Below are positions 45,853-63,586 of a DNA stretch of 64,000 bases, one piece after another. Below the pieces are notes generated by a model that saw only the letters and a program-made list of their open reading frames with translations, was not told the DNA's origin and ran no database searches. Made by a program: the position numbers and the translations under genes. How positions within the stretch are numbered: the stretch's first letter is position 1; every line of letters starts with the position of its first letter. This DNA is from Paraburkholderia sprentiae WSM5005. Its GTDB lineage: Bacteria > Pseudomonadota > Gammaproteobacteria > Burkholderiales > Burkholderiaceae. The DNA lies in assembly GCF_001865575.2 (NCBI RefSeq), contig NZ_CP017562.2, forward strand, positions 248,001 through 312,000, written 5' to 3'.

Positions 45853-46059
45853 CTATAGATAAGTTCCGCCGATGCGGCCTTCGAAGATCGCGGTGTTGAT
45901 CTCCCAATCGTCGACGGTACCCGTGCCGCCACCGTCCACCTTGACGACTACCGAGCGGCCGCCGTGCAGCGCCTTCATCTGTTCGACGGTCAGCGTTTTT
46001 TGCCCGGATGGATCGCCCGCGCGAGGCGGCAGGTCCTTGATGATCACATTGGCTTTCAT
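45853..46059 (-). CDS. Double-glycine leader peptide E (68 aa), divergent leader
   Basis: The 68-residue product starts VIIKDL (residues 5-10) and reaches Gly33-Gly34 with Leu23 (-12), Met28 (-7) and Leu31 (-4), the hydrophobic positions of C39-peptidase leaders. Cleavage after Gly34 would release a 34-residue Gly- and Asp-rich core (VDGGGTGTVDDWE...) without Cys. The leader is about eight residues longer than in its four neighbours. AAGGAG precedes ATG 46059, and a near-perfect sigma-54 promoter lies at 46115-46130. It is the likely cargo of the PCAT exporter at 60518. Its role is unknown. Confidence 0.75.
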   Translation of the reverse strand: MKANVIIKDLPPRAGDPSGQKTLTVEQMKALHGGRSVVVKVDGGGTGTVDDWEINTAIFEGRIGGTYL

Positions 46060-46114
46060 GGCATTTCTCCTTGACGTGGAAAGGCGAGCACAGTGCGGCG
46101 CCCGCTTCGAGTTC

Positions 46115-46130
46115 TGCAAGGCGCATGCCA
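46115..46130 (-). promoter_or_regulatory. Sigma-54 (-24/-12) promoter of peptide gene E
   Basis: Read on the minus strand: TGGCATGCGCCTTGCA, matching consensus TGGCAC-N5-TTGCA with one mismatch and correct GG-to-GC spacing. Predicted transcription start is about 46104, roughly 45 bases before ATG 46059. Confidence 0.75.
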
Positions 46131-46343
46131 ATCTGAGGGGAACGTGATCCGGAAATCGAGCGGGAGCCGCAATGCGAAGCCTGGCAACGATCCACGCTTT
46201 AGGGGCGTTGAAGCGTAGTGGACACGATCGCGATGGCGAATCGAAGTGTTCGCGCGCGTCCCACGAGTCGCGTGCGAATCGTTGGGGCTCAGCGCAGTGT
46301 TGCGCATCGCGAGGTTGTGCGTGCAACACTCAGCCGGAAGCGC

Positions 46344-46377
46344 AAACAGAAACGGCACGCGCCCTATGCGCGTGCCG
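46344..46377 (-). terminator. Intrinsic terminator after peptide gene D
   Basis: On the minus strand a 10-bp stem CGGCACGCGC/GCGCGTGCCG with a 5-nt loop is followed by TTTCTGTTTG. It starts 29 bases after the stop of the 72-aa peptide gene and separates the four-peptide region from gene E. Confidence 0.8.
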
Positions 46378-46405
46378 CAATGGTGATACGACCCAGCGAG
46401 CGATG

Positions 46406-46624
46406 CTAGCGGCGCGGGCGCTTGCGCGGCGACGCTGCCTCGGCGATACGCAGATGCGCGGTCGCAAAGCCCGGCGGGTACTCGACAACGCGCGGCGCGG
46501 CCGGCACCAGCGGCGCGGCGAGACTCGAACGCGCACCGACACGGGCGCCGCCGACGATCGCGGCCATCGCCTCGCGGTCCAGTTCGACGCTTTCGGTCAG
46601 ATCCTTGATGGTCAGCTTGGCCAT
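46406..46624 (-). CDS. Double-glycine leader peptide D (72 aa)
   Basis: The leader reads MAKLTIKDL, then ELD at 14-16, AM at 19-20, Ile23 and Gly25-Gly26, aligning without gaps to the other peptides. The core (46 residues after cleavage) is Ala/Arg/Pro-rich and strongly basic (ends ASPRKRPRR), unlike the Asn-rich cores of its neighbours. CCGGAG lies seven bases before ATG 46624, directly after a hairpin with a T5 run. It is the third gene after the sigma-54 promoter at 47546. The basic core could suggest membrane or nucleic-acid contact; that is speculation. Confidence 0.75.
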   Translation of the reverse strand: MAKLTIKDLTESVELDREAMAAIVGGARVGARSSLAAPLVPAAPRVVEYPPGFATAHLRIAEAASPRKRPRR

Positions 46625-46635
46625 GACGGCTCCGG

Positions 46636-46678
46636 AAAAACGCTCCGGCGGCCGGACCCGTTCGGGTTCCGGCCGCCG
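46636..46678 (-). terminator. Attenuator-like hairpin upstream of peptide gene D
   Basis: On the minus strand, arms CGGCGGCCGG and CCGGCCGCCG (10 bp, inner pairing CCCG/CGGG) are followed five bases later by TTTTT. It ends just before the ribosome-binding site of gene D. It probably reduces read-through from genes A and C into D. Confidence 0.6.
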
Positions 46679-46819
46679 TGCTCGGTATGTGTTCGGCGCG
46701 TTGTTCGTTGTACTCAGATCTCGACGCGCTTTCAGTATAGGAAATCCGTTCGCGGCGCGCATGGACGCGGTGTTGCCGCGGCAGTGAAGGAAACCCCGTT
46801 CCCCCGCTGCTGCGTCGGC

Positions 46820-47116
46820 TTACACGGCAGAGAAATTGCCGCCCCACAGCGTAGGGTCGACGTTCAGCTTCAGCGGCACGAATCCTGCGCCGATCACGCC
46901 GACGTTGTTGAGCGCTGCGACGTCGACATTTTGCTGCTGAACCAGGTTCTGATTGATTGTGACGTTGACGTTGGCGATGCCGGCAAGGCTGCCGAGACCG
47001 CCATAGCCGCCCGAGGGCATGGGCACGTTGCTGCCGGTGCCGCCGGCAATCCCGGACATGGCCCGGCGGTCGAGTTCGCGCGTGCCGGACAGATCGCGAA
47101 TCATGAGGGATGACAT
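46820..47116 (-). CDS. Double-glycine leader peptide C (98 aa)
   Basis: The leader MSSLMIRDL, ELD at 14-16, AM at 19-20, Ile23 and Gly25-Gly26 aligns with the other peptides. The 72-residue core is Gly/Asn/Gln-rich (NVNVTINQNLVQQQNVDVAAL) and hydrophobic toward the end, with no Cys. Such composition suits beta-rich or amyloid-like assembly, which is inference. GGAGAA precedes ATG 47116. It follows peptide gene A by 88 bp containing a large hairpin, so it is probably the second gene of a sigma-54 transcript. Confidence 0.78.
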   Translation of the reverse strand: MSSLMIRDLSGTRELDRRAMSGIAGGTGSNVPMPSGGYGGLGSLAGIANVNVTINQNLVQQQNVDVAALNNVGVIGAGFVPLKLNVDPTLWGGNFSAV

Positions 47117-47153
47117 GGCGTTTCTCCAAAGACATACGGAAAGCGGACAAGCA

Positions 47154-47200
47154 TGGCACGCGGCGAAGCGGCCCGCGTCAGCGGGCAGCTCGCCGCGCCA
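47154..47200 (-). other. Intercistronic hairpin between peptide genes A and C
   Basis: A 47-nt imperfect hairpin: outer arms TGGCGCGGCGA/TCGCCGCGTGCCA with inner stem GCCCGC/GCGGGC (47171-47186). It starts four bases after the stop of gene A. It may stabilise the first-gene mRNA or limit read-through. Confidence 0.6.
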
Positions 47201-47204
47201 CGCA

Positions 47205-47471
47205 TTACGAGTGGCTGTTGTTGTTCGACGTCACATACGGCATGAACGTCGAATCGATGCCTTCGGAGAACGCAACGTTGTTGCCGTTGGCGTTCTGGAA
47301 GTTCAGTTCGTTGGTGATCAGTTGCGTGGTCTCGGCGTTCTTGACTTTGGTCGGCGCATAGACAGGGCTGAAGTTATAGTAGCTCGACCCAAAGCCGCCG
47401 CGTACGGCGCGCATGGCCTTGCTGTCGAGTTGCTCGGTGACGGACAGGTCTTTGATCATCAGCGTTTTCAT
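47205..47471 (-). CDS. Double-glycine leader peptide A (88 aa)
   Basis: The leader reads MKTLMIKDL, EQLDSKAM at 13-20, Val23, Arg24-Gly25-Gly26: hydrophobic residues at -12, -7 and -4 and GG at the end, as required by C39 peptidases. The 62-residue core is Asn/Tyr/Ser-rich, lacks Cys, and is paralogous to the core of peptide B at 53495 (shared SPVYAP, TTQ, ANGNN, TSNN-SH). CAGGAGA precedes ATG 47471. Its sigma-54 promoter and 5' stem-loop at 47516-47561 are also shared with gene B. It is a predicted substrate of the PCAT at 60518. Confidence 0.82.
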   Translation of the reverse strand: MKTLMIKDLSVTEQLDSKAMRAVRGGFGSSYYNFSPVYAPTKVKNAETTQLITNELNFQNANGNNVAFSEGIDSTFMPYVTSNNNSHS

Positions 47472-47515
47472 GGTGAGTCTCCTGAAAGAAGTGTTCGCAG
47501 TGTTGCGAGTGGTGT

Positions 47516-47534
47516 CGAGCAATCCGTTTGCTCG
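47516..47534 (-). promoter_or_regulatory. 5'-terminal stem-loop of the peptide A transcript
   Basis: CGAGCA-N7-TGCTCG on the minus strand begins at the predicted start of the sigma-54 transcript (about 47535). The same hairpin occurs at the matching place before peptide gene B. A 5'-end stem-loop commonly protects mRNA from decay. Confidence 0.65.
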
Positions 47535-47545
47535 GACATCACTAA

Positions 47546-47561
47546 CGCACAGGTTGTGCCA
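47546..47561 (-). promoter_or_regulatory. Sigma-54 (-24/-12) promoter of peptide genes A-C-D
   Basis: Read on the minus strand: TGGCACAACCTGTGCG, with a perfect -24 TGGCAC and GC of the -12 element at the right spacing. A 433-bp intergenic region (47472-47904) separates this from the divergent kinase gene; a dyad TGTCG-N9-CGACA at 47703-47721, about 145-160 bp upstream, could be an activator site. Confidence 0.75.
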
Positions 47562-47904
47562 GTTTTATTCAAGTATCCTGACAAAGTTGCCGAATCCCTG
47601 TCGCATAAGGGTTTGGCAGATGTGCCGGCCACCGCGCCGGTGAGCTCGGAGCACGTTGACGCGCTCCGGGCGGTGGCTGCCGCCCGACATCGCAGCGCGC
47701 CCTGTCGGCTGGCGTACGACATTGCGCGAACGACGACTCGGCGCGGTGCGCGGCCGATGCCTGGTTTGCCTGGTTTGCGAAAGCGCGGACCGGGAGCTAG
47801 TATCGAAACGGCACATGTAACCGGTTACGACAGGTTTTCTATCAACCCGCGTGGCTTCGGTCGCACGCGACACGGTCCAGCGGCAACGGCGGTGCTTCGC
47901 ACAA

Positions 47905-49968: not shown

Positions 49969-49995
49969 TCGGTGATAGAGCTCATCGAACCCGTC

Positions 49996-51945
49996 TCAGT
50001 GCAGATCCTTGACGACGCGAAAGCCGTCCTGCGATTGACGCACGCCCGCGCTGTATTTGAAGCGCGTCGCGCTGAGCATGTAGTCGCCACCTTCGCGCCA
50101 TGAGCCGCCGCGAATCACCCGCATCTCGCAGCCGGGCGAGTCCCACACATGGCCATCGACGGGCGCGCCCTGATAGGAGTTGTGCCAGCAGTCGGCGGTC
50201 CATTCCCAGACGCCGCCGTTCATGTCGTACAAGCCGAGCGGGTTGGCGGCGAACGTGCCGACGTTTTCCGGCCCTTCCTTGTGCCACGGGTCGCCGCAGT
50301 CCTTGCAGTTGGCGTTGCCCTTGCGCATCTGCTCACCCCACCAGTACGCGGTCGTGGTGCCGGCGCGGTCCGCGTATTCCCATTCGGCTTCGGTCGGCAG
50401 ACGGTACGGTTTGCCGGTCGATTTGGCGAGCCATTTGACGTACTGCTGCGCGTCGTCCCAACTGAGATCGCGCGCGGGTGCCGCCTTGTTGCTATTGCTT
50501 TGTGGCGTCAGCTTCTGGCATGCGTTGGCGGCGACGCACGCATTCCATTGCTCGACCGTCACCGGGAATTTGCCGATCGCGAATGGCGCGCCAATGCTGA
50601 CGCGATGCACCGGCTTTTCCGACGGGTCGTCGGTATTGCTGCCCATCGCGAACGAGCCGGCGGGTACCACGACCATGATTGGACAGCTCGCGCAGTCGCG
50701 GAGCTCTCCGGCAGTCGGCGGATGGGCGACGGTCTTTTGCGCGAGTGGCGCCGCGGCGGCCGAGGCGGGTGGCGTTGGCGATGGCGATGGCGCGGCAGCG
50801 GGGTGAGGTGGTGGCGCAGCGGCTGGCGTGGAACTCACCGCGGGAGTCGATGCCGCCGCGCGCAACCGATCGATACGCGCATGCGCAAGCGTAGCGAAGC
50901 GGCCATTCGGGTAGGCCTTCAGATAAGCCTCGTAATCGGCCGGGTAGTTGCTGTCCTTGATCGACTCCCAGAACGTGATTTCGTATTGTTCGCCGCTTTC
51001 TTTGGGCATGATGCCGCGACTGCGCGGCGTGATGGCCCGATCGTCGGACGTATTCGACGACTCTCTGGCGGCTTCGCCACTGGTGGGAATGGAAGAACCC
51101 GCAACAGAGAGCCACGGTTGCTGGATGCCGCGTGTGACGGTGCGTACTTCGGCGGCGACGTGCCGGAACAACGCGATGAGCGATTCGGACGATGCGTCGC
51201 CATCATTCAGTGCCTGCAACAAGGCACGGGTATAGACGCCATGCCGCGGGCCGTCCGCCGCGAAGCCGCCCGGTGCGGTCGCATAGGCAATCATGGTGTT
51301 GGCAGAGATCACCGGCTTTTCTATCGCAACTGCGGCGGGCGTAAAGGGATTGTCGAGACACGTATCGAGAATCACGAGATTGAGCCGGCCCGCGCGCGTG
51401 GATTGCATCGCATCCAAAACGGTATTCAGATCGATGCCGTTATTGAGTAGCGACGCCGGTGCGCGGGTATCGGCTCGCGCATCCAGTCTCGCCGGCAAAA
51501 GCAGCGTTTGCGGGCCTATCTGCATGCCGTGTCCGGCGAAATAGAACAATCCGATATCACCTGTTCGCAAGCGTCGTTGAAATGCGTCGATGGCCGCGCG
51601 CATTTGCGGCGGCGTCGCATTCGTTCGGGTGATGACGTCGAAACCACGCGCGCGAAGTGCATCGCTGATCGATTCGGCGTCGCGCGGCGCATTGGCGCGG
51701 ATCGGGTTGATGGCGTCGCCGTACTCGCCATTTCCGATCACGAGCGCGACGCGTCGCGAATGCGTCGCGCCGTGCGATAAAGCAAGTGGTGAAAGGAGCC
51801 AAGCGGTATCCGCCGGCCACCCCGCACTACGCGTCGCCCAAGCCGCGCTCGGCTCGATGCGTTCACGTTGCGTTGCGGCACCAGCACTGTCCCACTGCGC
51901 CTGGATTGCCCCAACCACGCATACCAGCAGGAATCGTCTCCACAT
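49996..51945 (-). CDS. Exported caspase-like peptidase fused to an FGE-sulfatase domain
   Basis: The 649-residue protein has a signal peptide ([16 protein letters not shown]), a C14 caspase domain with His in FYFAGHGMQ (about 139) and Cys in LDTCLDNP (about 196), and a short repeat ([15 protein letters not shown]). A Pro/Ala linker leads to an SUMF1/FGE-sulfatase domain (about 422-649; [53 protein letters not shown]). Both catalytic caspase residues are present. ATG 51945 has AGGA seven bases upstream. It is convergent with the kinase gene. It could process or modify periplasmic or secreted proteins; the target is unknown. Confidence 0.88.
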
Positions 51946-52255
51946 CTTCATATCCTGTTTGTACCGGACAGAATTGAGGCCTTCGTGCCCCGCGCTCGCG
52001 CTGTCCGCACTGTTCATTAACGATAGCACGCGCTTCGCGTCACAACTGTCCGGGAGTCCTTAACGCGTCATACGGTTAACGAGCATTGCGTATCTTTTTG
52101 GCAAGTTACGTCCTAAGCTCATTCACAAAGTCACGTCACACGGTCGTTTTAACTAGGTGGTCGTGCGCGAATTCAACTTGCGACATGCCGCTCAAACACC
52201 CGGAAGATCATCACTAGCCGGGCCCAGCCATGACTCCTGTTCAGGAGAGTGCGCT

Positions 52256-52759
52256 ATGCGAAGAACCCGTGTTCCCTCTCTTTTCGGCATGCGTCATCCG
52301 GCGCAAGCGCATTGCGGCGGATTACACGCGGCAGTATGTGCGACGTTCGTCGCGGTCTGCCTCGGTATCGGAACTGGCGGCGTCGCGCGCGCCGAGCAGA
52401 CGCAGTCGCCGCCGGGCGCCGAGGAGTACATCATCTGGCCGTCCGATGGCGCGGTGATACACGGCGGCAAGCTGTGGGTGCGCATGGGGCTGCGCAATAT
52501 GGGCGTGTGTCCGAAGGGCGTCGCATTTCCCAATTCCGGCCACCATCATCTACTGATCGACACGGATCTGCCCGCCCTCGACCAGGAGATTCCGTCGGAT
52601 CGCCAGCACCTGCATTTCGGTGCGGGCGAAACCGACGCACGCATCGAGTTGCCGCCCGGCAAGCACACGCTGCAGCTGATTCTCGGCGACCATAATCACG
52701 TGCCGCACATACCGCCCGTGTACTCGAGGAAGATCACCATCACCGTGCTAAAAAACTAA
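52256..52759 (+). CDS. Exported DUF4399 protein, copy 1
   Basis: The 167-residue protein has a long signal region (cleavage after ARA, about residue 45) and the DUF4399 core: IIWPSDGAVIHGG, VRMGLRNMGVCPKG, SGHHHLLIDTDLP, LHFGAGETD, LPPGKHTLQLILGDHNHVPH. The many conserved His residues suggest metal binding. AGGAGA precedes ATG 52256. It is followed 46 bp later by a second, closely related DUF4399 gene, so the pair is a tandem duplication. Its role in this locus is unknown. Confidence 0.82.
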   Translation: MRRTRVPSLFGMRHPAQAHCGGLHAAVCATFVAVCLGIGTGGVARAEQTQSPPGAEEYIIWPSDGAVIHGGKLWVRMGLRNMGVCPKGVAFPNSGHHHLLIDTDLPALDQEIPSDRQHLHFGAGETDARIELPPGKHTLQLILGDHNHVPHIPPVYSRKITITVLKN

Positions 52760-52805
52760 CGCGATCCGTTCGTTCGAACTGGTCAAGCCGGAACGGAGAG
52801 TCCTG

Positions 52806-53243
52806 ATGAAGAAGATCCTTGCGGCCGCCGCGTTTGTCGCAGCGGCACTGGCGCCATCGACCGCGCCGCAACGCGCGTGGGCAGCAGAGCCGTCGCCCGC
52901 TGGCGCATACGCATACATCGGCTATCCGAACGATGGCCAGGTGGTGCCCGCCAATAAGCCCTTCCGGGTATGGTTCGGCCTGCGTTTCATGGGCGTCGCG
53001 CCAAAAGGCGTCAAGTACCCGAACACGGGCCACCATCATCTTCTGATCGATACCGATCTGCCGCCGATGGATCAGGAGATACCCTCGGACCGCCATCATT
53101 TGCATTTCGGCGCGGGCGAAACGGAAACGATGATTCAATTGCCGCCGGGCAAGCATACGTTGCAGCTGTTGATGGGCGACGACATGCATATGCCGCACAA
53201 CCCGCCGGTGTATTCGAAGAAGATCACGGTGATCGCGCGCTGA
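52806..53243 (+). CDS. Exported DUF4399 protein, copy 2
   Basis: The 145-residue protein has a Sec signal peptide (cleavage near AWA, about residue 26) and the same core as copy 1: GYPNDGQVVPANKPF, TGHHHLLIDTDLPP, HLHFGAGETE, LPPGKHTLQLLMGDDMHMPHNPPVYS. It lacks the extra Cys of copy 1. CGGAGA precedes the ATG. The pair lies between the caspase-FGE gene and peptide gene B, inside the PCAT locus, suggesting a periplasmic accessory role. Confidence 0.85.
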   Translation: MKKILAAAAFVAAALAPSTAPQRAWAAEPSPAGAYAYIGYPNDGQVVPANKPFRVWFGLRFMGVAPKGVKYPNTGHHHLLIDTDLPPMDQEIPSDRHHLHFGAGETETMIQLPPGKHTLQLLMGDDMHMPHNPPVYSKKITVIAR

Positions 53244-53402
53244 CTGTCGTCATGCGGCCAACCATGTCGCGCACGCTGTTGGCTGCCATCCACCATTCAC
53301 GAGTCTTGCCTTGCCGGTTGGTCGCGTTCGAAGAACGGCTGCGATGTTCGAGACCTTTGCCAGCAAGCGTTCAGGACGTGAATGAGGCAGGCGGGACACT
53401 CC

Positions 53403-53418
53403 TGGCATAACCCATGCA
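53403..53418 (+). promoter_or_regulatory. Sigma-54 (-24/-12) promoter of peptide gene B
   Basis: TGGCATAACCCATGCA matches TGGCAC-N5-TTGCA with two mismatches and exact GG-GC spacing. It aligns base by base with the promoter of peptide gene A (shared TGGCA-AACC--TGC). Predicted start about 53429, 66 bases before ATG 53495. Confidence 0.75.
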
Positions 53419-53429
53419 TCAGTAGCGCC

Positions 53430-53448
53430 CGAGCAGACAAGTTGCTCG
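53430..53448 (+). promoter_or_regulatory. 5'-terminal stem-loop of the peptide B transcript
   Basis: CGAGCA-N7-TGCTCG at the predicted 5' end of the sigma-54 transcript, identical in arms and loop length to that before peptide gene A. Confidence 0.65.
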
Positions 53449-53494
53449 AACCCGACGCACGACGATGCCCGTTCCCTTTTCCAGGAGATTCGAC

Positions 53495-53782: not shown

Positions 53783-53789
53783 ACGGTGC

Positions 53790-53826
53790 GGCGCACGCGC
53801 GGCCCGAGCGGCCGCGCATGTGCGCC
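53790..53826 (+). other. Strong hairpin between peptide gene B and the TolC-type gene
   Basis: Arms GGCGCACGCGCGGCC and GGCCGCGC-ATG-TGCGCC around a 5-nt loop, starting eight bases after the peptide stop. No T tract follows, so mRNA stabilisation or partial attenuation fits better than full termination. Confidence 0.6.
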
Positions 53827-54008
53827 CTGCAACAGGCTGGTCGCTCAAAAAGACCGCTCATTCAATCGTCCTTTCGACGCATCCTTCGCGTATCCGCCGC
53901 TCCCCGCATCGACGTTTCCGCGGCTTCATTGCCGATGCCGCGCGAAATGCGGCTCGGCCTGAAGCCGGGCAGCTCGCGCGAAACAGGCGAATGCAATCGG
54001 AGATCATC

Positions 54009-55511
54009 GTGTCAGCATTGCCGGAATCATCGCCCGATTTGCCGTGTGATTCGCCGCAACGTCAGCGACTCTGCGCTGCGACGACGGCGCCGCGCGACAT
54101 GGGCCGTGTGCTGCGCGGCATCGGCGCCGCAACGATGTGCGCGCTTGTGTTGAGTGCGTGCGTCGACGTGCGCATGCCGGCTTATCAACGCCCGGACACG
54201 CCGGACAAGACATCGTGGTCGGATCGCAAGGGCGCACCGGTATCGGCGGCGCAGACGATCGAGCGCGACTGGTGGAAGGGCTTCCAGGACCCGTACCTGA
54301 ACACGCTGATCGACAAGGCGATCGACGGCAACTTCGATATCCGGGTGCTGGCCGCGCGTATCGAAGTCGCGCACACGCAGATCAGCGAGACCCAAGCGGG
54401 CGCATTGCCGAGCGTGGACCTCGGGGCGGGCACCGACATCCAGACGTCGACCGGACAGCCTTTGACAAGGACGTATAACGTCGCGCTGCAGGTGAGCTGG
54501 GACATCGACATCTGGGGCAAGGTCGAAAAAGGCGTGCAGGCGCAAAAAGCCGAATTCCACGCGAGCGAGGCGGATTGGCGCGCGGGGTATCTCGAACTGG
54601 TCGCGAATGTGGCCAGTACCTATTTCCAGATCCTGCAATTCGACGACCAGATCGCGCAGCAGCAAAAGACTATCGACACGAACCGGCAAATCCTGACGAT
54701 CTACCAAGGCCAGGCGCGCAACGGGCTCGTGCCGCAAACGCAGGTCTTGCGCCAGCTGGCGGAGATCAACCGGCTCACCAACGATCTGTTCGAGCAGCGA
54801 CGCTCACGCGCGGTCGCCAACAACGCGCTCTGTACGCTACTCGGCGTGCCGGCCGGCGAGTTCCAACTGCCGCAGGGTCATTTGCAGGACCGGGTGAAGT
54901 TGCCGAGCGTGCCCGATGGCTTGCCCGCGCAATTGTTGTCGCGCCGTCCCGACGTGGTGGCGGCCGAATTCAGGGTGCTCGAGGCCTATGACCTTGTCGG
55001 TCAGTCGAAGCTCGCCCAATTGCCGACCATCGGCCTTACCGCGCAGGGCGGTACGGCAAGCTACGCGCTCAACCAGTTGCTGAAGTCGTTCACGTTCGGC
55101 CTGATGCCGAGCATCAACATCCCGCTGTTCGATCCGGGCGTGCGCGCACATGTGAAGGTGAGCGAAGCGCAGTCTACAGTCGCCGAGCAGCAATATCGCG
55201 TGGCAGTGATGGGCGCGTTCGAGGAAGTGGAAAATGCGCTCGTCAATCTGAGTGCCCATAAGGCGCAGCACGCGGAACTGCAGCAGCAGGTGGCGCGGCT
55301 GCAGATCGTCGCGGACCAGATCCAGTCGCAACTACGCCTTGGCGTCGTGTCGCAACTCGAAGTGTTCGAAGACGAGCGGACCTTGCTGGAGGCGCAACAG
55401 GCCTTGCTGGCAAATCATCAATTGATTCTGTCCGATACGGTAACGCTTTATAAGGCGCTCGGCGGCGGCTGGCCAGGCGTCGACGTACAAGCGCAGATCA
55501 AAGAGAAGTAA
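54009..55511 (+). CDS. TolC/NodT-type outer-membrane efflux lipoprotein
   Basis: The 500-residue outer-membrane factor has a lipobox (LVLSAC, Cys about 52) and two OEP repeats: DYWW-like WWKGFQDPYLNTLIDKA, ASTYFQILQFDDQIAQQQKT, and LLSRRPDVVAAEFRV near the middle, as in the NodT family. It should form the trimeric channel for the HlyD/PCAT machinery. The start is GTG 54009 with GGAG six bases upstream, which leaves a long n-region; ATG 54099 would give a more usual lipoprotein signal but has no ribosome-binding site. It lies 226 bp after peptide gene B. Confidence 0.88.
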   Translation: MSALPESSPDLPCDSPQRQRLCAATTAPRDMGRVLRGIGAATMCALVLSACVDVRMPAYQRPDTPDKTSWSDRKGAPVSAAQTIERDWWKGFQDPYLNTLIDKAIDGNFDIRVLAARIEVAHTQISETQAGALPSVDLGAGTDIQTSTGQPLTRTYNVALQVSWDIDIWGKVEKGVQAQKAEFHASEADWRAGYLELVANVASTYFQILQFDDQIAQQQKTIDTNRQILTIYQGQARNGLVPQTQVLRQLAEINRLTNDLFEQRRSRAVANNALCTLLGVPAGEFQLPQGHLQDRVKLPSVPDGLPAQLLSRRPDVVAAEFRVLEAYDLVGQSKLAQLPTIGLTAQGGTASYALNQLLKSFTFGLMPSINIPLFDPGVRAHVKVSEAQSTVAEQQYRVAVMGAFEEVENALVNLSAHKAQHAELQQQVARLQIVADQIQSQLRLGVVSQLEVFEDERTLLEAQQALLANHQLILSDTVTLYKALGGGWPGVDVQAQIKEK

Positions 55512-55605
55512 CGAAACATTGAGCTAATCCTGGTGTTGGCGTATCACGCGGGTATTTCGTCGGCTGATGACTTACGCGCTGTCTTCTCAACCGGCGATAT
55601 CCAAA

Positions 55606-55633
55606 TTGACACTCTCGATGCGTGACTTACAAT
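55606..55633 (+). promoter_or_regulatory. Sigma-70 promoter of the FHA-HlyD-PpiC-PCAT operon
   Basis: -35 TTGACA, 16-base spacer, -10 TACAAT; predicted start about 55640. This suggests housekeeping expression of the secretion machinery, in contrast to the sigma-54 promoters of the peptide genes. Confidence 0.7.
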
Positions 55634-55748
55634 CCTTTAGGGGTCAGCGTTTGCGTGGCTCGTCACAACGACATGGTTGCGCCGTTGTTCTTCGTCCCGT
55701 TCGCCCCGCGTCGTCGCCGCGGCGGGTAAACGCTTAGTGATCCAGAAA

Positions 55749-58337
55749 ATGGCCACCGGCGAAGCTCCGATTGCTGAAATGCGCGCGACAGTGGGCACTG
55801 CCTTCGACGTGGTGTTGTCGCCGGTAGCGTGCGCGCAGCGCCCCGCGCTCGAAGCGATTCGCATCGTCGACAACCTGTTCGCCATCGGCCGCAGCGAAGC
55901 GCCGTTCAACGACTACCCTCCGCAATGGACCGCCGGTCTCTCGCGCCGGCATGCGCGCGTTTTCGTCGAGCATGGCGCGATTTATGTTGCCGATCTAGGC
56001 AGCAAGAACGGCACCACGGTCAACGGCATCGCGGTGCGGCAAGCTCCCGCGCGCGTGTGCGCCGGCGATGAACTCTGCTTTGGCGGTGAGCTGCGCTATC
56101 GGGTCGGCATCGAGCCGCGCGCGCGCATCGTCGCGAGCGGAAGCGCTTCGCCCGTCACGCATCTATTGCTGGTGCCGCAGCGCGATGACCTTGGTCTGCA
56201 ACCGGTCGACGTGCTGGCTTTTCCGTTTCTCGTCAGCAAGACGGACGAGGTTTTCTCCCGCTATAAAGATCGTTATCCGCACCAGGTCAATTACATTTCG
56301 CGGCGCCATGCGCATCTGTTTCTGAAGGGCGGTGCGCTTTATGTCGAGGATCTCGGCAGCACCAACGGTACGTTCGTGAATGGGCAGCGGCTCGGCGAAT
56401 CGGCGCTTGCGCTGGTGGATGGCGACGTCGTTGCATTTGGCGGCGACCACTTCGTCTACAGGGTGTCGCTGCAGAAATCCCCCGACGTCGAACCCACCGT
56501 GACCCAGCTTTCTCTTCGTAGCGCTGCCGACAGTGGCGCCGATGCCGACAAGACCACCTTCGTCGGCGCGGCGCATTCGTTTCTCGAGATCTTTTGCGTC
56601 GATCCGGCGCTGCAACGCGAAGACGAAGTCAATGAAGCGGCGCAGCCGGGCGCCGCGCGCGCGAAGCGCGATGGCGTAGCGACGGCAAACGGCGCGCAGG
56701 GGGCGCATCCCGCGGACCCGAAAGACCGCGCGAATGAAAGAAGCGGCAAAGGCGGCGTAAAGCGTCAGCCGCGACGCTGGAAGATGCTCGCCGGCGAACT
56801 GCACAAGGCGTTCGCGGACGGCGAGCATACCAACGCGCGGCGCGCCGCGGCATGGGGCGGCGCGGGTGTCGCAATCGTGGTTGCGCTCGGCGTGGGCCTC
56901 TATCTGCACGGTTCATCGGAACGGGAGTTGAAGAGCTTGCTCGCGAGCGGTGATTACTCGAGCGCCGTCACGGTGGCGCGCGGCTATCTGGCCACGCATC
57001 CGGCGGACACGAAAATCAGCGTGCTCGCGAGCGAGGCGTTGCTGAAAGGCGAATTGCCGGGCTGGCTCGAAGCACTGCAAAAAGCGCAGTTCGACCGGGC
57101 CGATGCGCTGCTGAAGAACATGAAGGCGTTGAGCGTGAATAACGCCGATGCCGCGTCGCTGGTCGGCGAACTGCAATGGGTCGGCGATCTCGAACGCTTC
57201 GTCGCGGCGCGCGGCGGCGTCGACGCGCCGATTCGCATGTACACGGACGAAGCGACGATCAATGACCTGCTGCACCGCTGGGACGACGACGCGACGAGTC
57301 ATCAGCGCGCGCTCGACCGTATTGCGAGCTACGTGCCGGTCTTCGCGGAGCCCTACGCGCAAGCGCTCAGTCATCTGCGCAAGCTCGAAAGCGACGATTC
57401 GGTGTACGTCGCCGCGATCGACCGGCTGAACGGCGTGATCCTCGCCGAACTCGCGCGCGACAAACCCGACGCGTTGCCACCGGTACTCGACGATTACGCG
57501 CAGCGTTATCCACGGCTCGCGGGACTCGATCGCGTGCGTGACGATTTGCGCCAATACACGGCCTTGCTGAATGCCGCGCTGAGCCGCCAGTTGACGTCAC
57601 TGCTAGCGATGATGAAAACCGCGCGCTTCCGTACACCGCCTTTTCAGGCCCAATTCCGGCAGCTTGCGGCTACGCGTTTGCCGGCGGCGGACGTCGTTCA
57701 ACGTCAGGATGCGGTCGACGCCGCGTGGCAGCGCGGCGACGCGCAGCAGGCGCTGAACGATTTGCAGTCGATGCCGGCGAGCCCGTGGTCCGACGTGCTG
57801 GCGACCGAAGCCGCGCACAAGAAGGGCTTGTTCGATCAATACAACGATTTGCAAAAAACCCGTGGCGCGAAGGATTACGACCAGCGTCTGCTGTCGTTTT
57901 ACGCGAGCCTCGATCCGCAGACCGACGCATGGTTCGTCCAGGCGGTCCAGAAAGACGTTGCCGCGTTGCATGACAAGGCACTCACGCACGCGCAAGATCT
58001 GCTGCTGCGCGCGCAAAGCCTGTGGAAGACATACCGCGCCAATGGTTCGATCGGCGGCACGCAGCGGCTCGAAGCCGGCATCTCGGCGGGCTTTCGCAAC
58101 GAAGCGCGGCTGCTGACCGAAGCGCAGACGGCGGCGCGGCAGGGCATGCGCATCTACACGCAGTTGAAGGCCGATCATCCCGCCGATTTCGATCGCCTGC
58201 TCGCGGATATCGAAGCCGAAGCGAGTTTGCAGCGTCGCTCGTTGACCGAGTTGCGCATGGTGCTGGACGCTGGGCTTTTGAAGGCGAAGCTCGCATTGAT
58301 TGGAGGCGATCAGAGTGAAACGCGACCCTCACCCTAG
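55749..58337 (+). CDS. Transmembrane protein with two FHA domains
   Basis: The 862-residue protein has two cytoplasmic forkhead-associated domains. The first has FAIGRSEAP, LSRRHARVF and DLGSKNGTTVNG (about 46-92). The second has ISRRHAHLF and DLGSTNGTFVNG (about 184-210). A charged linker, one membrane helix (about 367-387) and a long helical periplasmic domain follow. FHA domains bind phosphothreonine, so it probably docks targets of the Ser/Thr kinase at 47905 to the secretion complex. The HlyD gene overlaps its 3' end by 23 bases. The start is uncertain: ATG 55749 or GTG 55737 and TTG 55677 upstream; none has a strong site. Confidence 0.87.
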   Translation: MATGEAPIAEMRATVGTAFDVVLSPVACAQRPALEAIRIVDNLFAIGRSEAPFNDYPPQWTAGLSRRHARVFVEHGAIYVADLGSKNGTTVNGIAVRQAPARVCAGDELCFGGELRYRVGIEPRARIVASGSASPVTHLLLVPQRDDLGLQPVDVLAFPFLVSKTDEVFSRYKDRYPHQVNYISRRHAHLFLKGGALYVEDLGSTNGTFVNGQRLGESALALVDGDVVAFGGDHFVYRVSLQKSPDVEPTVTQLSLRSAADSGADADKTTFVGAAHSFLEIFCVDPALQREDEVNEAAQPGAARAKRDGVATANGAQGAHPADPKDRANERSGKGGVKRQPRRWKMLAGELHKAFADGEHTNARRAAAWGGAGVAIVVALGVGLYLHGSSERELKSLLASGDYSSAVTVARGYLATHPADTKISVLASEALLKGELPGWLEALQKAQFDRADALLKNMKALSVNNADAASLVGELQWVGDLERFVAARGGVDAPIRMYTDEATINDLLHRWDDDATSHQRALDRIASYVPVFAEPYAQALSHLRKLESDDSVYVAAIDRLNGVILAELARDKPDALPPVLDDYAQRYPRLAGLDRVRDDLRQYTALLNAALSRQLTSLLAMMKTARFRTPPFQAQFRQLAATRLPAADVVQRQDAVDAAWQRGDAQQALNDLQSMPASPWSDVLATEAAHKKGLFDQYNDLQKTRGAKDYDQRLLSFYASLDPQTDAWFVQAVQKDVAALHDKALTHAQDLLLRAQSLWKTYRANGSIGGTQRLEAGISAGFRNEARLLTEAQTAARQGMRIYTQLKADHPADFDRLLADIEAEASLQRRSLTELRMVLDAGLLKAKLALIGGDQSETRPSP

Positions 58338-59688
58338 ACCGTTGTCGGAGGCGCTCGAAGATCATAGCGTCGAAGGCATCGCGATTCTGACGTCGGAGCC
58401 GATGCGGATCGCGCGTGCGCTGATCTGGGCGATGGTTGCGCTCGTCGTCTCGGGTTTGTTGTGGTCGTTCGTCGGTCGCGCGGACGTGATCGTCAGTGCG
58501 CCTGGCACGTTGTCGCCGGAATCGGAAGTACGGCGCATCTATACGCCGATCGACGGCGAACTCGCGGATCTGTATATCGCCGAGGGGCAGCCGGTGTCGA
58601 AGGGCGACGTGCTGGCGCGACTCAATGCGCGCGGTGCGATCGAGGCCGCGAGCAATGCGTTGCAGGCCCAACTCAAACTCGAAGACGCCGAACGCGAATG
58701 GAAGCAGTTTCCGCAGAAGAAGGCGTTGATGGAACGCAAGGCCGCGTCGCTGAAGGCGCAACTCGAAGTCGAAGAGCGCTTGCACGAGAATCGCGTTTCA
58801 GAAGGCACGACGAAGCTTGCCGAAGGGCAGAAGGCCGAACTCGACGAAGCGCGCAGCTCGCTCGACAACGCGCGCCGTGTGCGCGAAGCGGCGAATCAGG
58901 AACTCGATCGCTATTCACGGCTGTTCGCGCAACCGGGCGGCGGTGGTATCGCTGAATTGCAGGTCGAGCAGAAACGCACGGCCGCGCTCGAGGCGGATAA
59001 CGCATACCGTGTCGCGCAATCGAAGCTGTCCGAGCTCGACTTCCGGCTGAGCCATGAATATGCGCAGGCGAACGCGCAACTCGCGACGAGCGGCCAGCAA
59101 AGCACCGATCTGCAACTGCAATACGATGCGGCGGTGCGCGATATCACCGATGCGGAAGACAAGCTGCGCGTGCAACTGCAAAGCGCACGCCTCGAAGCCG
59201 ATGCCGCCGCGCGCGTGCGTTTCGAGAACATCGACAAGGATAATTTTCTGCTGATTCTCGCGCCGGTTTCGGGCGTGATCACCGACGTCACATCGACGCA
59301 GCGCGGCGACAAGATTCAGGCGAATGCGCCGCTCGGCGGCATTGCGCCAAAAGACGCGCGGCCCGTGCTGAAGATAGAAATCGCCGAACACGACCGCGCT
59401 TTTCTGCACGAAGGCCTGCCGGTCAAATTGAAGTTCAACGCGTTTCCCTACCAGCGCTATGGGTTGATCAGCGGCACGCTAGCCTATATCTCGCCGGCCA
59501 CCAAACCGTCGGCGCAGGACAAGCAGCCGGTCTACGAGGGCCGCGTCATGCTCGACAACGATTACTACCAGGTGGCCGGCACGCGTTATCCGCTTCGTTA
59601 CGGCATGACCGCCAATGCGGAAATCGTCGTGCGTGAGCGGCGCCTGATCGATCTCGGTCTCGATCCGTTCAGAGAGGTGGCGGGTTGA
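58315..59688 (+). CDS. HlyD family periplasmic adaptor
   Basis: The 457-residue membrane-fusion protein has one N-terminal membrane helix (about 32-54), a split lipoyl/barrel-sandwich domain (VIVSAPGTLSP...YTPIDGELADLYIAEGQPVSKGDVL and LLILAPVSGVITDV), a long coiled-coil hairpin (about 105-310) and a C-terminal beta-barrel domain (VKLKFNAFPYQRYGLISGTLAYISP). It should bridge the PCAT and the TolC-type channel. The start is GTG 58315 with GGAGG eight bases upstream, overlapping the FHA gene. The coiled coil is long enough for a classic tripartite type I complex. Confidence 0.92.
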   Translation: MKRDPHPRPLSEALEDHSVEGIAILTSEPMRIARALIWAMVALVVSGLLWSFVGRADVIVSAPGTLSPESEVRRIYTPIDGELADLYIAEGQPVSKGDVLARLNARGAIEAASNALQAQLKLEDAEREWKQFPQKKALMERKAASLKAQLEVEERLHENRVSEGTTKLAEGQKAELDEARSSLDNARRVREAANQELDRYSRLFAQPGGGGIAELQVEQKRTAALEADNAYRVAQSKLSELDFRLSHEYAQANAQLATSGQQSTDLQLQYDAAVRDITDAEDKLRVQLQSARLEADAAARVRFENIDKDNFLLILAPVSGVITDVTSTQRGDKIQANAPLGGIAPKDARPVLKIEIAEHDRAFLHEGLPVKLKFNAFPYQRYGLISGTLAYISPATKPSAQDKQPVYEGRVMLDNDYYQVAGTRYPLRYGMTANAEIVVRERRLIDLGLDPFREVAG

Positions 59689-59725
59689 GCGCGCGAATCA
59701 AACATTCACCAAAGGAGCGGAGCAA

Positions 59726-60478: not shown

Positions 60479-60517
60479 TACCCGACTAGCGACCGATAAA
60501 GCGAGGCTCGCCGATAC

Positions 60518-63500
60518 ATGGATGCCCCCCAGACCGCGCCATCCGCGTCTTCCACCGCCGAATTTCTCGCTTCGGTGGAGATCCTGTCGGCGTTCTCGCG
60601 CGACGAGATCGAGCGGCTTGCCGACTACGCGCAGGCCAAGTCCTATTCGTTCGGCGAAACGGTGTGCTCGGCGGGAGAGGTGGCCGACGGGCTCTATGTG
60701 ATCCGCTCGGGTACGGTGCGCATCTTCACCGAGGAGCACGGCAAGGAATCCAGCAGGGGCGTGCGCAAATCGGGGGAGATCTTCGCCGACATTGCGATGC
60801 TGCGCACGTACGTTCACGAAGCGTCGGTACGGGCGTCGGCCAGGACCGAATTGCTGTTCATTCCGCGCACAGCGCTCGAACCCGTGATGGCGGGCAACGC
60901 CGCGGCGTTGGCGTTCGTCGCGAGCTATGTCGCGATCAATTCGGCCGGCGGCTTCGTCGCGCAACTGTTCGATCTGCGCGGCAAGTTGAACAAGGCGGAA
61001 CTCGAGGAATGCGTGCGCAGCGTCGGGGCCAAGCGGGTGGCTGCCGGCAAGGAGATTCTCAAACAGGACGGCCGCGACGACAGGCGGCTTTATCTGGTGC
61101 GGCAGGGCCAGGTGCGCATCGTGCGGCAGGAGCAGGGCCACGACTATACGCTCGCCACGCTCGGCGAAGGCGAGATCTTCGGCGAGAAGGCGTGCCTGAT
61201 GCGCCAGGAACAGATGGCATCGGTCGTCGCGACCACCGACACGCGGCTACTGGTCATTCCCGAGCGCACCGTTCATTTCATTCTCGAACGCAATCCAAAG
61301 CTACGCGAAGTACTCGACGAGCGCATCCGCTACGGCGACCGCGAATTGCAGCGGCAAAAGCGGCTCGAACAGCGGCGCAAGCTGCCGTTGCTGCTCGACC
61401 TGCAGAGCAAGCCGGAACTGGGCGAAAGGATCATCCGGCGCTTCGCGCTCGTCGAGCAGGCCGAGGAGATGGATTGCGGCGCCGCCTGCCTCGCGATGAT
61501 CTGCCGCCATTACGGCATTCCGATGACGCTCGGAAAACTGCGCGAACTCGCGAATGTGACGACGCAGGGCGCGACGCTCGATAGCCTCTCGCGCGCGGGC
61601 GAGTCGCTCGGCTTCACGACGCGCGGCGTGCAATGCACGTTCGATTCGCTCGCCGGCTTCGATCTGCCGTTTATCGTGCATTGGGAGGGCTATCACTACG
61701 TGATCGTGTACGGGCTGTCGAAGGACTATGTCTGGGTGGCGGACCCGGCACTCGGTTTCAGAAAACTGAGCGTCGAAGACTTCGAACGTGGCTGGAGCGG
61801 CACCTGTCTGTTGTTTACCGGCGGATCGCAACTGTTGCAGATGTCGGCCGCGCGCTCGCCGTGGATCCGTTTTGTCGGCTATCTGAAGCCGTACCGCAAG
61901 ATACTGGGCTATCTGTTTCTCGCGACTTTCGTGATCCAGGTGCTCGGCGTGATACCACCACTGATCATTCAGAACATTCTGGATGGCGTGATCGTGCATC
62001 AGAACGTCAGTCTGCTCCATCTGCTGATCGGCGGGCTCATCATCTCCAACGTCTTCACGCAGTTGATGTCGACGATTCGCGCCTATCTGGCGAACTTCAT
62101 GGTCCGCAACATGGACTTCGCGATGATGTCGCAGTTCTTCAAGCATACGATGTCGCTGCCGTTCTCGTTCTTCGCGAAGCGCAAGACCGGCGATATATTC
62201 GCGCGCTTTCAGGAGAACCAGACGATCCGTGCGTTCCTGACCGAATCCACCGTGACCACCGCACTGAATCTGCTGATGATCTTCATCTACTTCACGATCA
62301 TGTTCGTGTACAACGTGAAGATGACGCTGGTGTTGATCGCGTTCGTGATTCCGATCATGGGACTCACGGTGATCGCGACGCCGAAGATCAAGGGCTACGC
62401 GCGGGAGGTGTTTACGGCGTCCACCGAGGCGAAGTCGTTTCTGATGGAGGCTCTGGCCGGTGTCGAGACCGTCAAGGGCATGGGTATCGAGCGGCCAGTA
62501 CGGTTACGCTGGGAAAAGAAATACGCGAAGGCGCTTGAATTGCAGTATCGCGCGCACGCATTCAATATTCTGGTCAGCTTCGGCAGTCAATTGCTGAATG
62601 CGGCCACGACGATCGCGATTCTGTGGGTCGGCGCGAATCTGGTACTCGCGCGCGAATTGACGATCGGCCAGCTGATCGCGTTCAATGCGTTCATGGGCAG
62701 CGTATTGAGTCCGCTGATGGGGCTCGTCGGCCTGTGGAGCATGCTCAACGATGCGGGCGTCGCGATGGAACGGCTCGGCGATGTGCTCGATATCGAGCCC
62801 GAACAGAAGCCGCAGGATTTACCGTCGCGCGTGATGCTGCCGGAGCTGCAAGGCGAAATCAGCCTGCAAGGCGTGTATTTCCGCTATGGCGAAGACGATT
62901 CCGCTTATGTGCTGGAGAACATCAGCTTCGATATCAAGCCGGGCGAGCTGGTCGCGATCGTCGGGCGCAGCGGATCGGGCAAGACTACGCTGGCGAAGCT
63001 GCTGGTCGGCTTCTATCAGCCAAGCGAAGGGAAAATGACGATCGACGGCTATGACTCCGGCGTGATCGACAAGGCGTATTTTCGCGCGCAAATCGGCTAC
63101 GTGATGCAAAGCAATCTGCTGTTCTCGGGCACGATCGCCGAGAACATCGCGAGCGGCGACGACGCGCCGGAGCGCCGCCGCATCGAGGAAGTCGCGAAGA
63201 TGGCCGACGCCCACGGCTTCATCAGCAAGATGCCGCTCGGCTATGAGCAGATCGTGGGCGAACGCGGCATCGGTTTGTCGGGCGGTCAGATCCAGCGGCT
63301 TTGCATCGCGCGTGCGTTGTATCACGATCCGCGTCTGCTCGTATTCGACGAGGCGACCTCGGCGCTCGACTCGCAATCGGAAAGCAATATTCTCGGCAAT
63401 ATGCACGACATTCTGAAGGGCCGCACCGCGGTGATCATTGCACATCGTCTCAGCACGATCATGCGGGCGGACAAGATTCTCGTGCTGTATGAAGGCGCGA

Positions 63501-63586
63501 TCGTCGAACAGGGCCGTCACGAAGAGCTGATCCAGCGCGGCGGCATGTACTACCAGCTGGTGCAGAAACAGTTGAGCGCATCATGA
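60518..63586 (+). CDS. C39 peptidase-containing ABC exporter (PCAT) with two cNMP-binding-like domains
   Basis: The 1022-residue protein has two cyclic-nucleotide-binding-like domains (about 20-135 and 160-275), a C39 peptidase domain (about 308-430; Cys320 in MDCGAACL, His393 in HWEGYHYVIV, Asp409 in VADPA), an ABC exporter membrane domain (about 455-750) and a nucleotide-binding domain (Walker A GRSGSGKTT about 816, signature LSGGQ about 919, Walker B LLVFDEATSALD, H-loop AHRLST). It should cleave leaders after GG and export the cores. In the second cNMP domain the usual phosphate-binding Arg before Ala-Ser is Met, so ligand binding is doubtful. The last four bases overlap the activator gene. 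Confidence 0.95.
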   Translation: MDAPQTAPSASSTAEFLASVEILSAFSRDEIERLADYAQAKSYSFGETVCSAGEVADGLYVIRSGTVRIFTEEHGKESSRGVRKSGEIFADIAMLRTYVHEASVRASARTELLFIPRTALEPVMAGNAAALAFVASYVAINSAGGFVAQLFDLRGKLNKAELEECVRSVGAKRVAAGKEILKQDGRDDRRLYLVRQGQVRIVRQEQGHDYTLATLGEGEIFGEKACLMRQEQMASVVATTDTRLLVIPERTVHFILERNPKLREVLDERIRYGDRELQRQKRLEQRRKLPLLLDLQSKPELGERIIRRFALVEQAEEMDCGAACLAMICRHYGIPMTLGKLRELANVTTQGATLDSLSRAGESLGFTTRGVQCTFDSLAGFDLPFIVHWEGYHYVIVYGLSKDYVWVADPALGFRKLSVEDFERGWSGTCLLFTGGSQLLQMSAARSPWIRFVGYLKPYRKILGYLFLATFVIQVLGVIPPLIIQNILDGVIVHQNVSLLHLLIGGLIISNVFTQLMSTIRAYLANFMVRNMDFAMMSQFFKHTMSLPFSFFAKRKTGDIFARFQENQTIRAFLTESTVTTALNLLMIFIYFTIMFVYNVKMTLVLIAFVIPIMGLTVIATPKIKGYAREVFTASTEAKSFLMEALAGVETVKGMGIERPVRLRWEKKYAKALELQYRAHAFNILVSFGSQLLNAATTIAILWVGANLVLARELTIGQLIAFNAFMGSVLSPLMGLVGLWSMLNDAGVAMERLGDVLDIEPEQKPQDLPSRVMLPELQGEISLQGVYFRYGEDDSAYVLENISFDIKPGELVAIVGRSGSGKTTLAKLLVGFYQPSEGKMTIDGYDSGVIDKAYFRAQIGYVMQSNLLFSGTIAENIASGDDAPERRRIEEVAKMADAHGFISKMPLGYEQIVGERGIGLSGGQIQRLCIARALYHDPRLLVFDEATSALDSQSESNILGNMHDILKGRTAVIIAHRLSTIMRADKILVLYEGAIVEQGRHEELIQRGGMYYQLVQKQLSAS

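What the first reader, a model, noticed from the sequence alone, without database searches (positions are those of the whole stretch)
45853..63586. A family of five double-glycine peptides with a complete dedicated exporter
Seen: four small genes (46406-46624, 46820-47116, 47205-47471, 53495-53782) encode leaders that align without gaps to Gly25-Gly26 (L4, I6, K/R7, D8, L9, L15, D16, A19, M20, V/I23). A fifth (45853-46059) has IIKDL and Gly33-Gly34 with the same -12/-7/-4 hydrophobic residues. In the same 18 kb are TolC-type, HlyD, parvulin and C39-ABC genes. Known: C39 peptidases cut exactly such leaders, and cyanobacterial PCATs of this kind export small matrix or biofilm-regulating proteins. 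Inferred: these peptides are the cargo. The cores differ strongly in charge and composition, suggesting several secreted products from one machine. I do not recognise this peptide family as described.
Basis: partly seen in the sequence, partly recalled or inferred. Interest (0 to 1): 0.92.

Follow-up and report, generated by a model that had tools for sequence, protein, structure and literature searches.

The report
Sigma-54-controlled secreted-peptide export island
A soil bacterium related to Paraburkholderia carries an unannotated but widely conserved gene island that appears to switch on, process and export a family of small asparagine-rich proteins, which may coat or glue cells together.

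Summary
All five double-glycine (GG) genes are at the stated coordinates (four on the minus strand), and four leaders align without gaps. In the 7.84-Mb genome the leader model finds these four strongly, a related peptide 2 kb past the window, and one weak distant one. In 349 Burkholderiaceae genomes: 128 with leader and this exporter, 4 leader only, 0 exporter only, 217 neither. C39 domains occur in 122 of the 217 leader-negative genomes, so the link is to this exporter.

The locus is more than cargo plus exporter. A conserved block adds an FHA protein, PP2C phosphatase, caspase/FGE-like protein, DUF4399 pair, LRAT protein, often a Ser/Thr kinase, and a sigma-54 activator directly behind the exporter (75 of 75 loci). 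Sigma-54-type promoters sit at fixed distances before cargo genes, not before exporter genes.

Export after GG cleavage is strongly inferred. Function is open: an Asn-rich surface or matrix protein is favoured, a bacteriocin possible. The exporter core is a known cyanobacterial type; cargo families and wiring look new.

The parts
45853..46059 (-). GG peptide 5 (P0007, 68 aa), leader with 8-residue insertion, GG33-34
   Evidence: homologues with GG kept in L130, L131, L132, L137, decayed in L133
46115..46130 (-). sigma-54-type (-24/-12) site TGGCATGCGCCTTGCA, 71 nt before P0007
46406..46624 (-). GG peptide class D (P0004, 72 aa), short basic core
46820..47116 (-). GG peptide class C (P0005, 98 aa), Asn/Gly-rich core
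47205..47471 (-). GG peptide class A (P0006, 88 aa), first gene of the A-C-D cargo run
47546..47561 (-). sigma-54-type site TGGCACAACCTGTGCG, 90 nt before P0006
47851..49968 (+). Ser/Thr protein kinase (705 aa as longest ORF; start uncertain)
   Evidence: Pfam PF00069 E 1.8e-40
49996..52029 (-). caspase (C14) plus FGE/SUMF1-like domain protein (start uncertain)
   Evidence: Pfam PF00656, PF03781; 67 of 73 loci
52157..52759 (+). DUF4399 protein a (start uncertain)
52806..53243 (+). DUF4399 protein b
53403..53418 (+). sigma-54-type site TGGCATAACCCATGCA, 92 nt before P0003
53495..53782 (+). GG peptide class A (P0003, 95 aa)
53820..55511 (+). NodT-type outer-membrane factor (start uncertain)
   Evidence: NCBIfam TIGR01845 305 bits, above cut-off
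55677..58337 (+). FHA-domain protein, two FHA stretches (start uncertain)
   Evidence: PF00498 E 5.8e-29, two stretches
58300..59688 (+). HlyD-type membrane fusion protein (start uncertain)
   Evidence: PF13437, TIGR01843
59726..60478 (+). PpiC/parvulin-type peptidyl-prolyl isomerase
   Evidence: PF00639
60518..63586 (+). PCAT: two cNMP-binding stretches, C39 peptidase (C320/H393/D409), ABC membrane and ATPase domains
63583..64000 (+). sigma-54 activator (bEBP), first 139 of 453 codons; start overlaps the PCAT stop; continues beyond the window (L009:584-1945)
   Evidence: PF00158 E 1.7e-70; 75 of 75 named loci

Best explanation
A dedicated, regulated type I export island for small GG proteins. 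A locus-encoded sigma-54 activator, perhaps fed by the kinase/PP2C/FHA signalling set (inferred), switches on cargo genes from -24/-12 promoters. The PCAT, with its cNMP-binding domains, cuts each leader after GG with its C39 domain and exports the core through HlyD and the NodT-type channel, with the parvulin as helper (inferred from family knowledge). The mature A/B/C cores, about 65-71 residues and 15% Asn, most likely act outside the cell as surface or matrix proteins, possibly self-assembling, with the basic class D peptide as accessory. Shown here: genes, triad, leader family, co-occurrence, synteny, promoter footprint. Inferred: cleavage, export, signalling order, extracellular role. 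My split: export by this PCAT about 0.9; sigma-54 control about 0.85; matrix/surface role about 0.45.
For: Leader-PCAT co-occurrence 128/4/0/217 in 349 genomes (Fisher 7e-92, which ignores kinship); in the window's own genus, the window's genome included, 34 with both and 15 with neither. C39 domains occur in 253 of 349, so the leader goes with this PCAT and not with any C39. Triad intact; HlyB has Tyr at the Cys. Cleavage pair GG in 275 and GA in 10 of 286 distinct peptides, one unassigned. Named loci with full flanks: PpiC 73/73, OMF/FHA/HlyD 70/73, DUF4399 68/73, caspase-FGE 67/73, bEBP 75/75, PP2C 72/75, LRAT 68/75, GG peptide upstream 65/73, downstream 72/75. Sigma-54-like sites scoring at least 9 of 12: class A 113/151 (reversed-sequence control 15), class B 76/80 (control 8), at fixed distances; LRAT 69/77 (control 5); none of the exporter, kinase, caspase, DUF4399 or PP2C genes stands out. 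Asn 14.5-15.3% in A/B/C cores against 2.7% in twelve larger proteins of the locus and its edges. Three of four EbfG proteins, GG proteins whose secretion involves the C39 protein PteB, form amyloid (PMC9981879, passages).
Against: No expression, secretion or phenotype data were seen. Passage searches of two P. phymatum transcriptome papers (nitrogen starvation/symbiosis; rpoN) for exporter words found none (main text only, locus tags not mapped). The kinase was seen in only 25 of 36 unnamed-genome loci fetched at 20-30 kb; for the named loci the flank is too short to tell. The site counts come from related genomes, and a reversed control can itself be high by shared descent (PCAT upstream: 50 of 116 in control against 1). 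Class A cores evolve fast (mean pN 0.24, pS 0.35; one close pair has pN 0.17 above pS 0.10; leaders 0.05, 0.27), which would also suit bacteriocins. AlphaFold gave no confident fold: B mean pLDDT 46.7; A 65.5 with no strands assigned. One genome (G191, 5 contigs) has a leader hit without this PCAT, and one PCAT-positive genome (G242) matches only over residues 395-895. In three of 73 loci (L119, L122, L124, Oxalobacteraceae) HlyD, FHA and OMF were not found.
Confidence: 0.6

Rival explanations
1. The peptides are class II microcin/bacteriocin-type antimicrobials; the island is a competition locus.
For: GG leaders plus PCAT are the classical bacteriocin arrangement (general knowledge); class A cores change fast and are tandemly amplified (38 A-A pairs among 99 adjacent same-strand pairs); cyanobacterial loci with the same exporter core were named bacteriocin clusters (PMC3140520, passages).
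Against: Class B cores are strongly conserved (mean pN 0.09, pS 0.40 over 44 pairs). Median gap between neighbouring same-strand cargo genes is 89 nt, leaving little room for immunity genes, though immunity could lie elsewhere. No Pfam or NCBIfam match above cut-off for nine peptides scanned.
Confidence: 0.22
2. The peptides are extracellular signals (pheromones) read back through the kinase or cNMP domains.
For: The locus holds a complete-looking signalling set: kinase, PP2C, FHA, bEBP, cNMP domains.
Against: 65-71-residue Asn-rich cores encoded several times over are large for a pheromone, and I identified no dedicated receptor. The signalling set fits control of secretion equally well.
Confidence: 0.13
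3. The peptides are RiPP precursors modified by the FGE-like, caspase or LRAT proteins before or after export.
For: FGE-like and LRAT domains sit in the block; the LRAT gene shares the sigma-54-type site.
Against: A/B/C cores have almost no Cys (0-0.23%), and the C-terminal stretch of the FGE-like domain shows no Cys in the window (read by eye; its meaning is recalled). The caspase-FGE N-terminus looks like a signal peptide (by eye), which would put it outside the cytoplasm. LRAT was not found in 7 of 75 loci.
Confidence: 0.12

Closest known systems
Cyanobacterial long-type C39 export clusters, groups I, II and VI (Wang, Fewer and Sivonen 2011, PMC3140520; passages seen)
   Same: N-terminal CAP_ED/cNMP domain, C39 and ABC in one protein, with HlyD and a SurA/rotamase protein and GG precursors nearby.
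   Different: Two cNMP stretches here; the block adds kinase, PP2C, FHA, sigma-54 activator, caspase-FGE, DUF4399 and LRAT. The word kinase does not occur in that paper's main text; the other additions were not searched for there. The precursors match no NCBIfam model at cut-off.
PteB/EbfG1-4 system of Synechococcus elongatus (PMC4997328, PMC9981879; passages seen)
   Same: A C39-family protein is implicated in secretion of several small GG proteins; three of four cores form amyloid and the proteins are needed for biofilm.
   Different: Cores not compared directly here; different phylum. In PMC4997328 the words kinase, HlyD and cyclic nucleotide do not occur.
Threonine phosphorylation pathway of type VI secretion (PpkA-PppA-Fha; recalled)
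   Same: Kinase, PP2C phosphatase and FHA protein next to a secretion machine.
   Different: The machine is a type I PCAT; no T6SS protein among the ten window neighbours scanned.
Fap functional amyloid system with C39 protein FapD (recalled)
   Same: C39 peptidase plus repeat-rich secreted protein; the other C39 locus of this genome looks Fap-like by eye.
   Different: FapD-like protein is not an ABC transporter; separate locus on another contig.

Membership tests
Peptidase-containing ABC transporter (PCAT) | C39 domain with Cys-His-Asp triad fused to ABC membrane and ATPase domains | tested here: met
   PF03412, PF00664, PF00005; C320/H393/D409
Peptidase-containing ABC transporter (PCAT) | Double-glycine leader substrates genetically linked | tested here: met
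   128 of 128 PCAT-positive genomes have the leader
Peptidase-containing ABC transporter (PCAT) | Cleavage after GG and ATP-driven export | not testable with these tools
   needs biochemistry or secretome data
Cyanobacterial long-type C39 export cluster (groups I/II/VI) | CAP_ED/cNMP-C39-ABC protein plus HlyD plus rotamase | tested here: met
   against the description
Cyanobacterial long-type C39 export cluster (groups I/II/VI) | NHLP/Nif11-type or other catalogued precursor family | tested here: not met
   no NCBIfam match at cut-off for the five window peptides or four further peptides scanned
Class II microcin/bacteriocin | Linked immunity gene and antimicrobial activity | tested here: inconclusive
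   cargo genes spaced by a median of 89 nt; immunity genes not searched for further; activity not testable
EbfG-like matrix proteins | Sequence kinship of cores and amyloid formation | not tested
   EbfG sequences were not fetched; amyloid needs assay
Sigma-54-dependent regulon | AAA+ sigma-54 interaction domain activator at the locus | tested here: met
   PF00158 E 1.7e-70; 75 of 75 loci
Sigma-54-dependent regulon | -24/-12 promoter before target genes | tested here: met
   A 113/151, B 76/80, LRAT 69/77 against reversed controls 15, 8, 5; by sequence only, consensus recalled
T6SS threonine phosphorylation pathway | Linked to a type VI secretion apparatus | tested here: not met
   no T6SS family among the ten window neighbours scanned; they include type I secretion components

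The most novel reading that the evidence does not exclude
A new secretion-control architecture: a PCAT whose output is gated at two levels, by a locus-encoded sigma-54 activator for cargo transcription and by a Ser/Thr kinase-PP2C-FHA switch plus cNMP domains for the machine, exporting a new family of small Asn-rich subunits that assemble into an extracellular fibre or coat unrelated to curli or Fap. The PCAT-HlyD-rotamase-FHA core, with sigma-54 activators or a cNMP-kinase nearby in some lineages, would be an old module of Pseudomonadota.
Probability: 0.3. Interest if true: 0.87.

Novelty: new variant of a known kind. Interest (0 to 1): 0.74.

Why it matters
By its leader the island is in 132 of 349 sampled Burkholderiaceae genomes, yet the peptides scanned matched no curated family at cut-off, and the names shown in the homologue lists (120 of 128 and 120 of 660 hits listed) read hypothetical, uncharacterized or blank, apart from one UniRef entry labelled DUF4150 domain-containing. 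If right, a widespread group of soil and plant-associated bacteria has an unrecognised regulated secretome of small proteins, with promoters, regulator, exporter and cargo in one testable unit. It would also tie phospho-signalling and sigma-54 to PCAT export, a link that the listings of the searches made here did not show.

Tried and rejected
Chance GG motifs: rejected by the whole-genome leader search and co-occurrence. Generic C39 link: rejected, since 122 of 217 leader-negative genomes have C39 domains (counted by reading the lists). Phage or plasmid cargo: no phage hit; plasmid hits are three Caballeronia replicons of 1.3-2.0 Mb. RNA element control: no Rfam match at gathering score in 44000-64000. 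Solved-structure relatives of class A: none convincing (best E 0.48). Structure: class B model mean pLDDT 46.7, class A 65.5 (residues 51-95 at 70-87 by blocks of ten but no strands assigned), too weak for claims. Curlin kinship: suspected by eye, no curlin match among Pfam hits at E up to 1 for the five window peptides, so not claimed. Sigma-54 pattern as a count is not significant in the window by itself (3 found, 1.65 expected, 27 of 100 shuffles reach 3), and a fuller consensus with two mismatches found fewer than chance (7 against 13.5); the case rests on position and on relatives. More cargo by promoter: the pattern with a start codon behind it gave 24 matches in the genome against 3 for the backward pattern, but only P0007 and the class B peptide showed a GG leader. 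Sigma-54 cargo in six distant loci: none recognised. Annotated copy in a Caballeronia plasmid record: no features there. Other papers seen as passages only: PMC12322963 lists a DUF4399 protein of B. thailandensis without linking it to such a locus; PMC7474880 lists type I secretion parts of P. fungorum without a C39 protein.
Full report
What is there. All five GG genes exist as described; four lie on the minus strand and P0003 on the plus strand. Four leaders are gap-free relatives. The fifth has an 8-residue insertion but keeps GG and the hydrophobic spacing; five fetched loci match it, four keeping the GG (87, 81, 65 and 55% identity) and one decayed. The exporter has two cNMP-binding stretches, a C39 domain with C320/H393/D409, and ABC domains, next to HlyD, a parvulin and a NodT-type channel.

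More than chance. A model of the four leaders, run over the whole 7.84-Mb genome at E up to 1, returns six places: the four in the window, a fifth 2 kb beyond its end (class B, downstream of the exporter) and a weak sixth about 0.9 Mb away. That last is a 79-aa GG peptide with its own sigma-54-type site 82 nt upstream.

Co-occurrence. In 349 Burkholderiaceae genomes, the window's own included, the leader (E up to 1e-3) is in 132 and this PCAT (E up to 1e-200) in 128; all 128 PCAT genomes are leader-positive (sets compared by reading the two lists). One of the 128, G242, matches only over residues 395-895. Within the window's genus it is 34 with both and 15 with neither. The four leader-only genomes are G179 and G215 (440 and 430 contigs), G297 (broken PCAT fragment) and G191 (a true exception by this test). 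C39 domains occur in 253 of 349: 131 of the 132 leader-positive and 122 of the 217 leader-negative genomes, including 14 of the 15 same-genus ones. Related genomes are not independent, so the Fisher value is only a guide.

Conserved island. The usual order is D- C- A- kinase+ caspase/FGE- DUF4399a+ DUF4399b+ A+ OMF+ FHA+ HlyD+ PpiC+ PCAT+ bEBP+ PP2C- B- LRAT+. Among named loci with full flanks: PpiC 73/73; OMF, FHA and HlyD 70/73; DUF4399 68/73; caspase-FGE 67/73; bEBP 75/75, its start within -3 to +6 nt of the PCAT end in 77 of 80 loci; PP2C 72/75; LRAT 68/75; GG peptide upstream 65/73 and downstream 72/75. The kinase lies too far out for the named loci; it was found in 25 of the 36 unnamed-genome loci, so its tie is looser. 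In some genomes the kinase plus D-C-A half lies to the right of LRAT (L139, L161, L164, L165). A PCAT tree of 48 rows groups by genus, which suggests mainly vertical descent.

Cargo. At 50 bits or more, the mature cores form class A (150 distinct), B (72), C (27) and smaller groups that include the basic class D. Core-only profile comparison joins A-B (probability 85), A-C (72) and B-C (65), against at most 4.3 for 60 shuffled-column controls. The common part reads roughly A-x-Q-x-I-x-Q-x-Q ... N ... V-x-P ... N. Asn is 14.5-15.3% in A/B/C; D is basic, with 16.6% Lys+Arg (class D there was picked by a rough rule and contains one short class-B-like fragment). Leaders of A are conserved (mean pN 0.05, pS 0.27 over 36 pairs) while A cores change fast (0.24, 0.35; one close pair with pN above pS); B cores are conserved (0.09, 0.40 over 44 pairs). 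No curated family matched at cut-off for nine peptides scanned, and names in the homologue lists read hypothetical, uncharacterized or blank, with one UniRef DUF4150 label (120 of 128 hits listed; 120 of 660 listed, with only the 8000 best candidates scored).

Regulation. In the window the exact pattern TGGCAY-N6-TGC occurs three times on both strands, each time 71-92 nt before a GG gene: P0007, P0006 and P0003. The count alone is no more than chance allows. Across loci, sites scoring at least 9 of 12 lie before 113 of 151 class A genes (106 of these at 80-99 nt) and 76 of 80 class B genes (60 at 60-79 nt); controls on reversed sequence give 15 and 8. Class C (1 of 28; control 1) and the remaining, mostly class D, peptides (10 of 37; control 1) mostly lack them, which fits their place behind A in one run (adjacent pairs: A-A 38, A-C 28, C-D 26 of 99). 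LRAT genes have them in 69 of 77 (control 5). Kinase 2/27, caspase-FGE 2/66, DUF4399 2/85 and 1/209, OMF 1/48, FHA 10/111 (control 9), HlyD 1/112, PpiC 1/115, PCAT 1/116 and PP2C 1/82 do not stand out; the reversed control reaches 50 of 116 for PCAT, a reminder that one inherited stretch can fill such counts. The gene overlapping the PCAT stop codon in the window is a sigma-54 activator with no receiver domain found (PF00158); one follows PCAT in 75 of 75 loci.

Deeper history. In 249 genomes drawn from the phylum, seven besides the window's own have relatives at E up to 1e-150. Six are full length at 33-36% identity, and in all six a stretch matching the window's FHA protein follows the PCAT (E 9e-9 to 5e-5); Pfam confirmed FHA in the three scanned (L180, L183, L184). 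The seventh, a C39-ABC protein without cNMP part, has HlyD but no FHA match. A sigma-54-activator-like gene stands next to the parvulin in L179, L181 and L183 (the piece in L183 matched only the AAA lid model), and L184 has a kinase with a cNMP domain. No cargo was recognised there. The class B model matched 2 of 200 genomes drawn from the order, one being the window's own, so the cargo looks narrower than the exporter.

Mechanism and doubts. The likeliest working is signal to bEBP/sigma-54, cargo transcription, C39 cut after GG, export through PCAT-HlyD-NodT, and an extracellular role as surface or matrix protein. Only the sequence-level parts are shown. The closest functional precedent is EbfG/PteB, where three of four proteins form amyloid (PMC9981879, passages). 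The fast class A cores keep a bacteriocin role open. Models by AlphaFold were weak, and the structure library search was not run.

Literature. Ten full-text searches in open-licence PMC papers (one search failed on a word form) showed no description of this island in their listings. Subscription papers, notably the 2004 screen of GG peptides in Gram-negative bacteria (Dirix et al., cited in PMC3140520), were not held, so earlier mention cannot be excluded.

Noticed in passing
L009:2758-3042 (-), about 2 kb beyond the window end: A further cargo peptide (class B, GAPWIYGWIQPY core) with a sigma-54-type site 77 nt upstream.
   Followed up: yes
L010:2154-2393 (+), genome C2 about 1.2257 Mb: A distant seventh GG peptide with a Pro/Cys-containing core and its own sigma-54-type site, possibly exported in trans.
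   Followed up: partly
L002 (genome C1 about 2.512 Mb): The genome's other C39 protein lies in what looks by eye like a Fap-type amyloid operon beside a repeat protein; sigma-54 activators lie within 5 kb on both sides.
   Followed up: no
window 45509-45664 (-): Small hydrophobic ORF (MLGTILLIVLILLLIGAF...) between the peptide cluster and the SDR gene; not classified.
   Followed up: no
   Followed up: no
L163 (genome G016) and L114: Cargo with different cores (Gly/Ser-rich, or tandem near-identical copies) under the same leader, suggesting lineage-specific replacement of class A.
   Followed up: no
L119, L122, L124 (Oxalobacteraceae): PCAT and parvulin present but HlyD, FHA and OMF not found; L122 instead carries eight GG peptides and the kinase downstream.
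   Followed up: no
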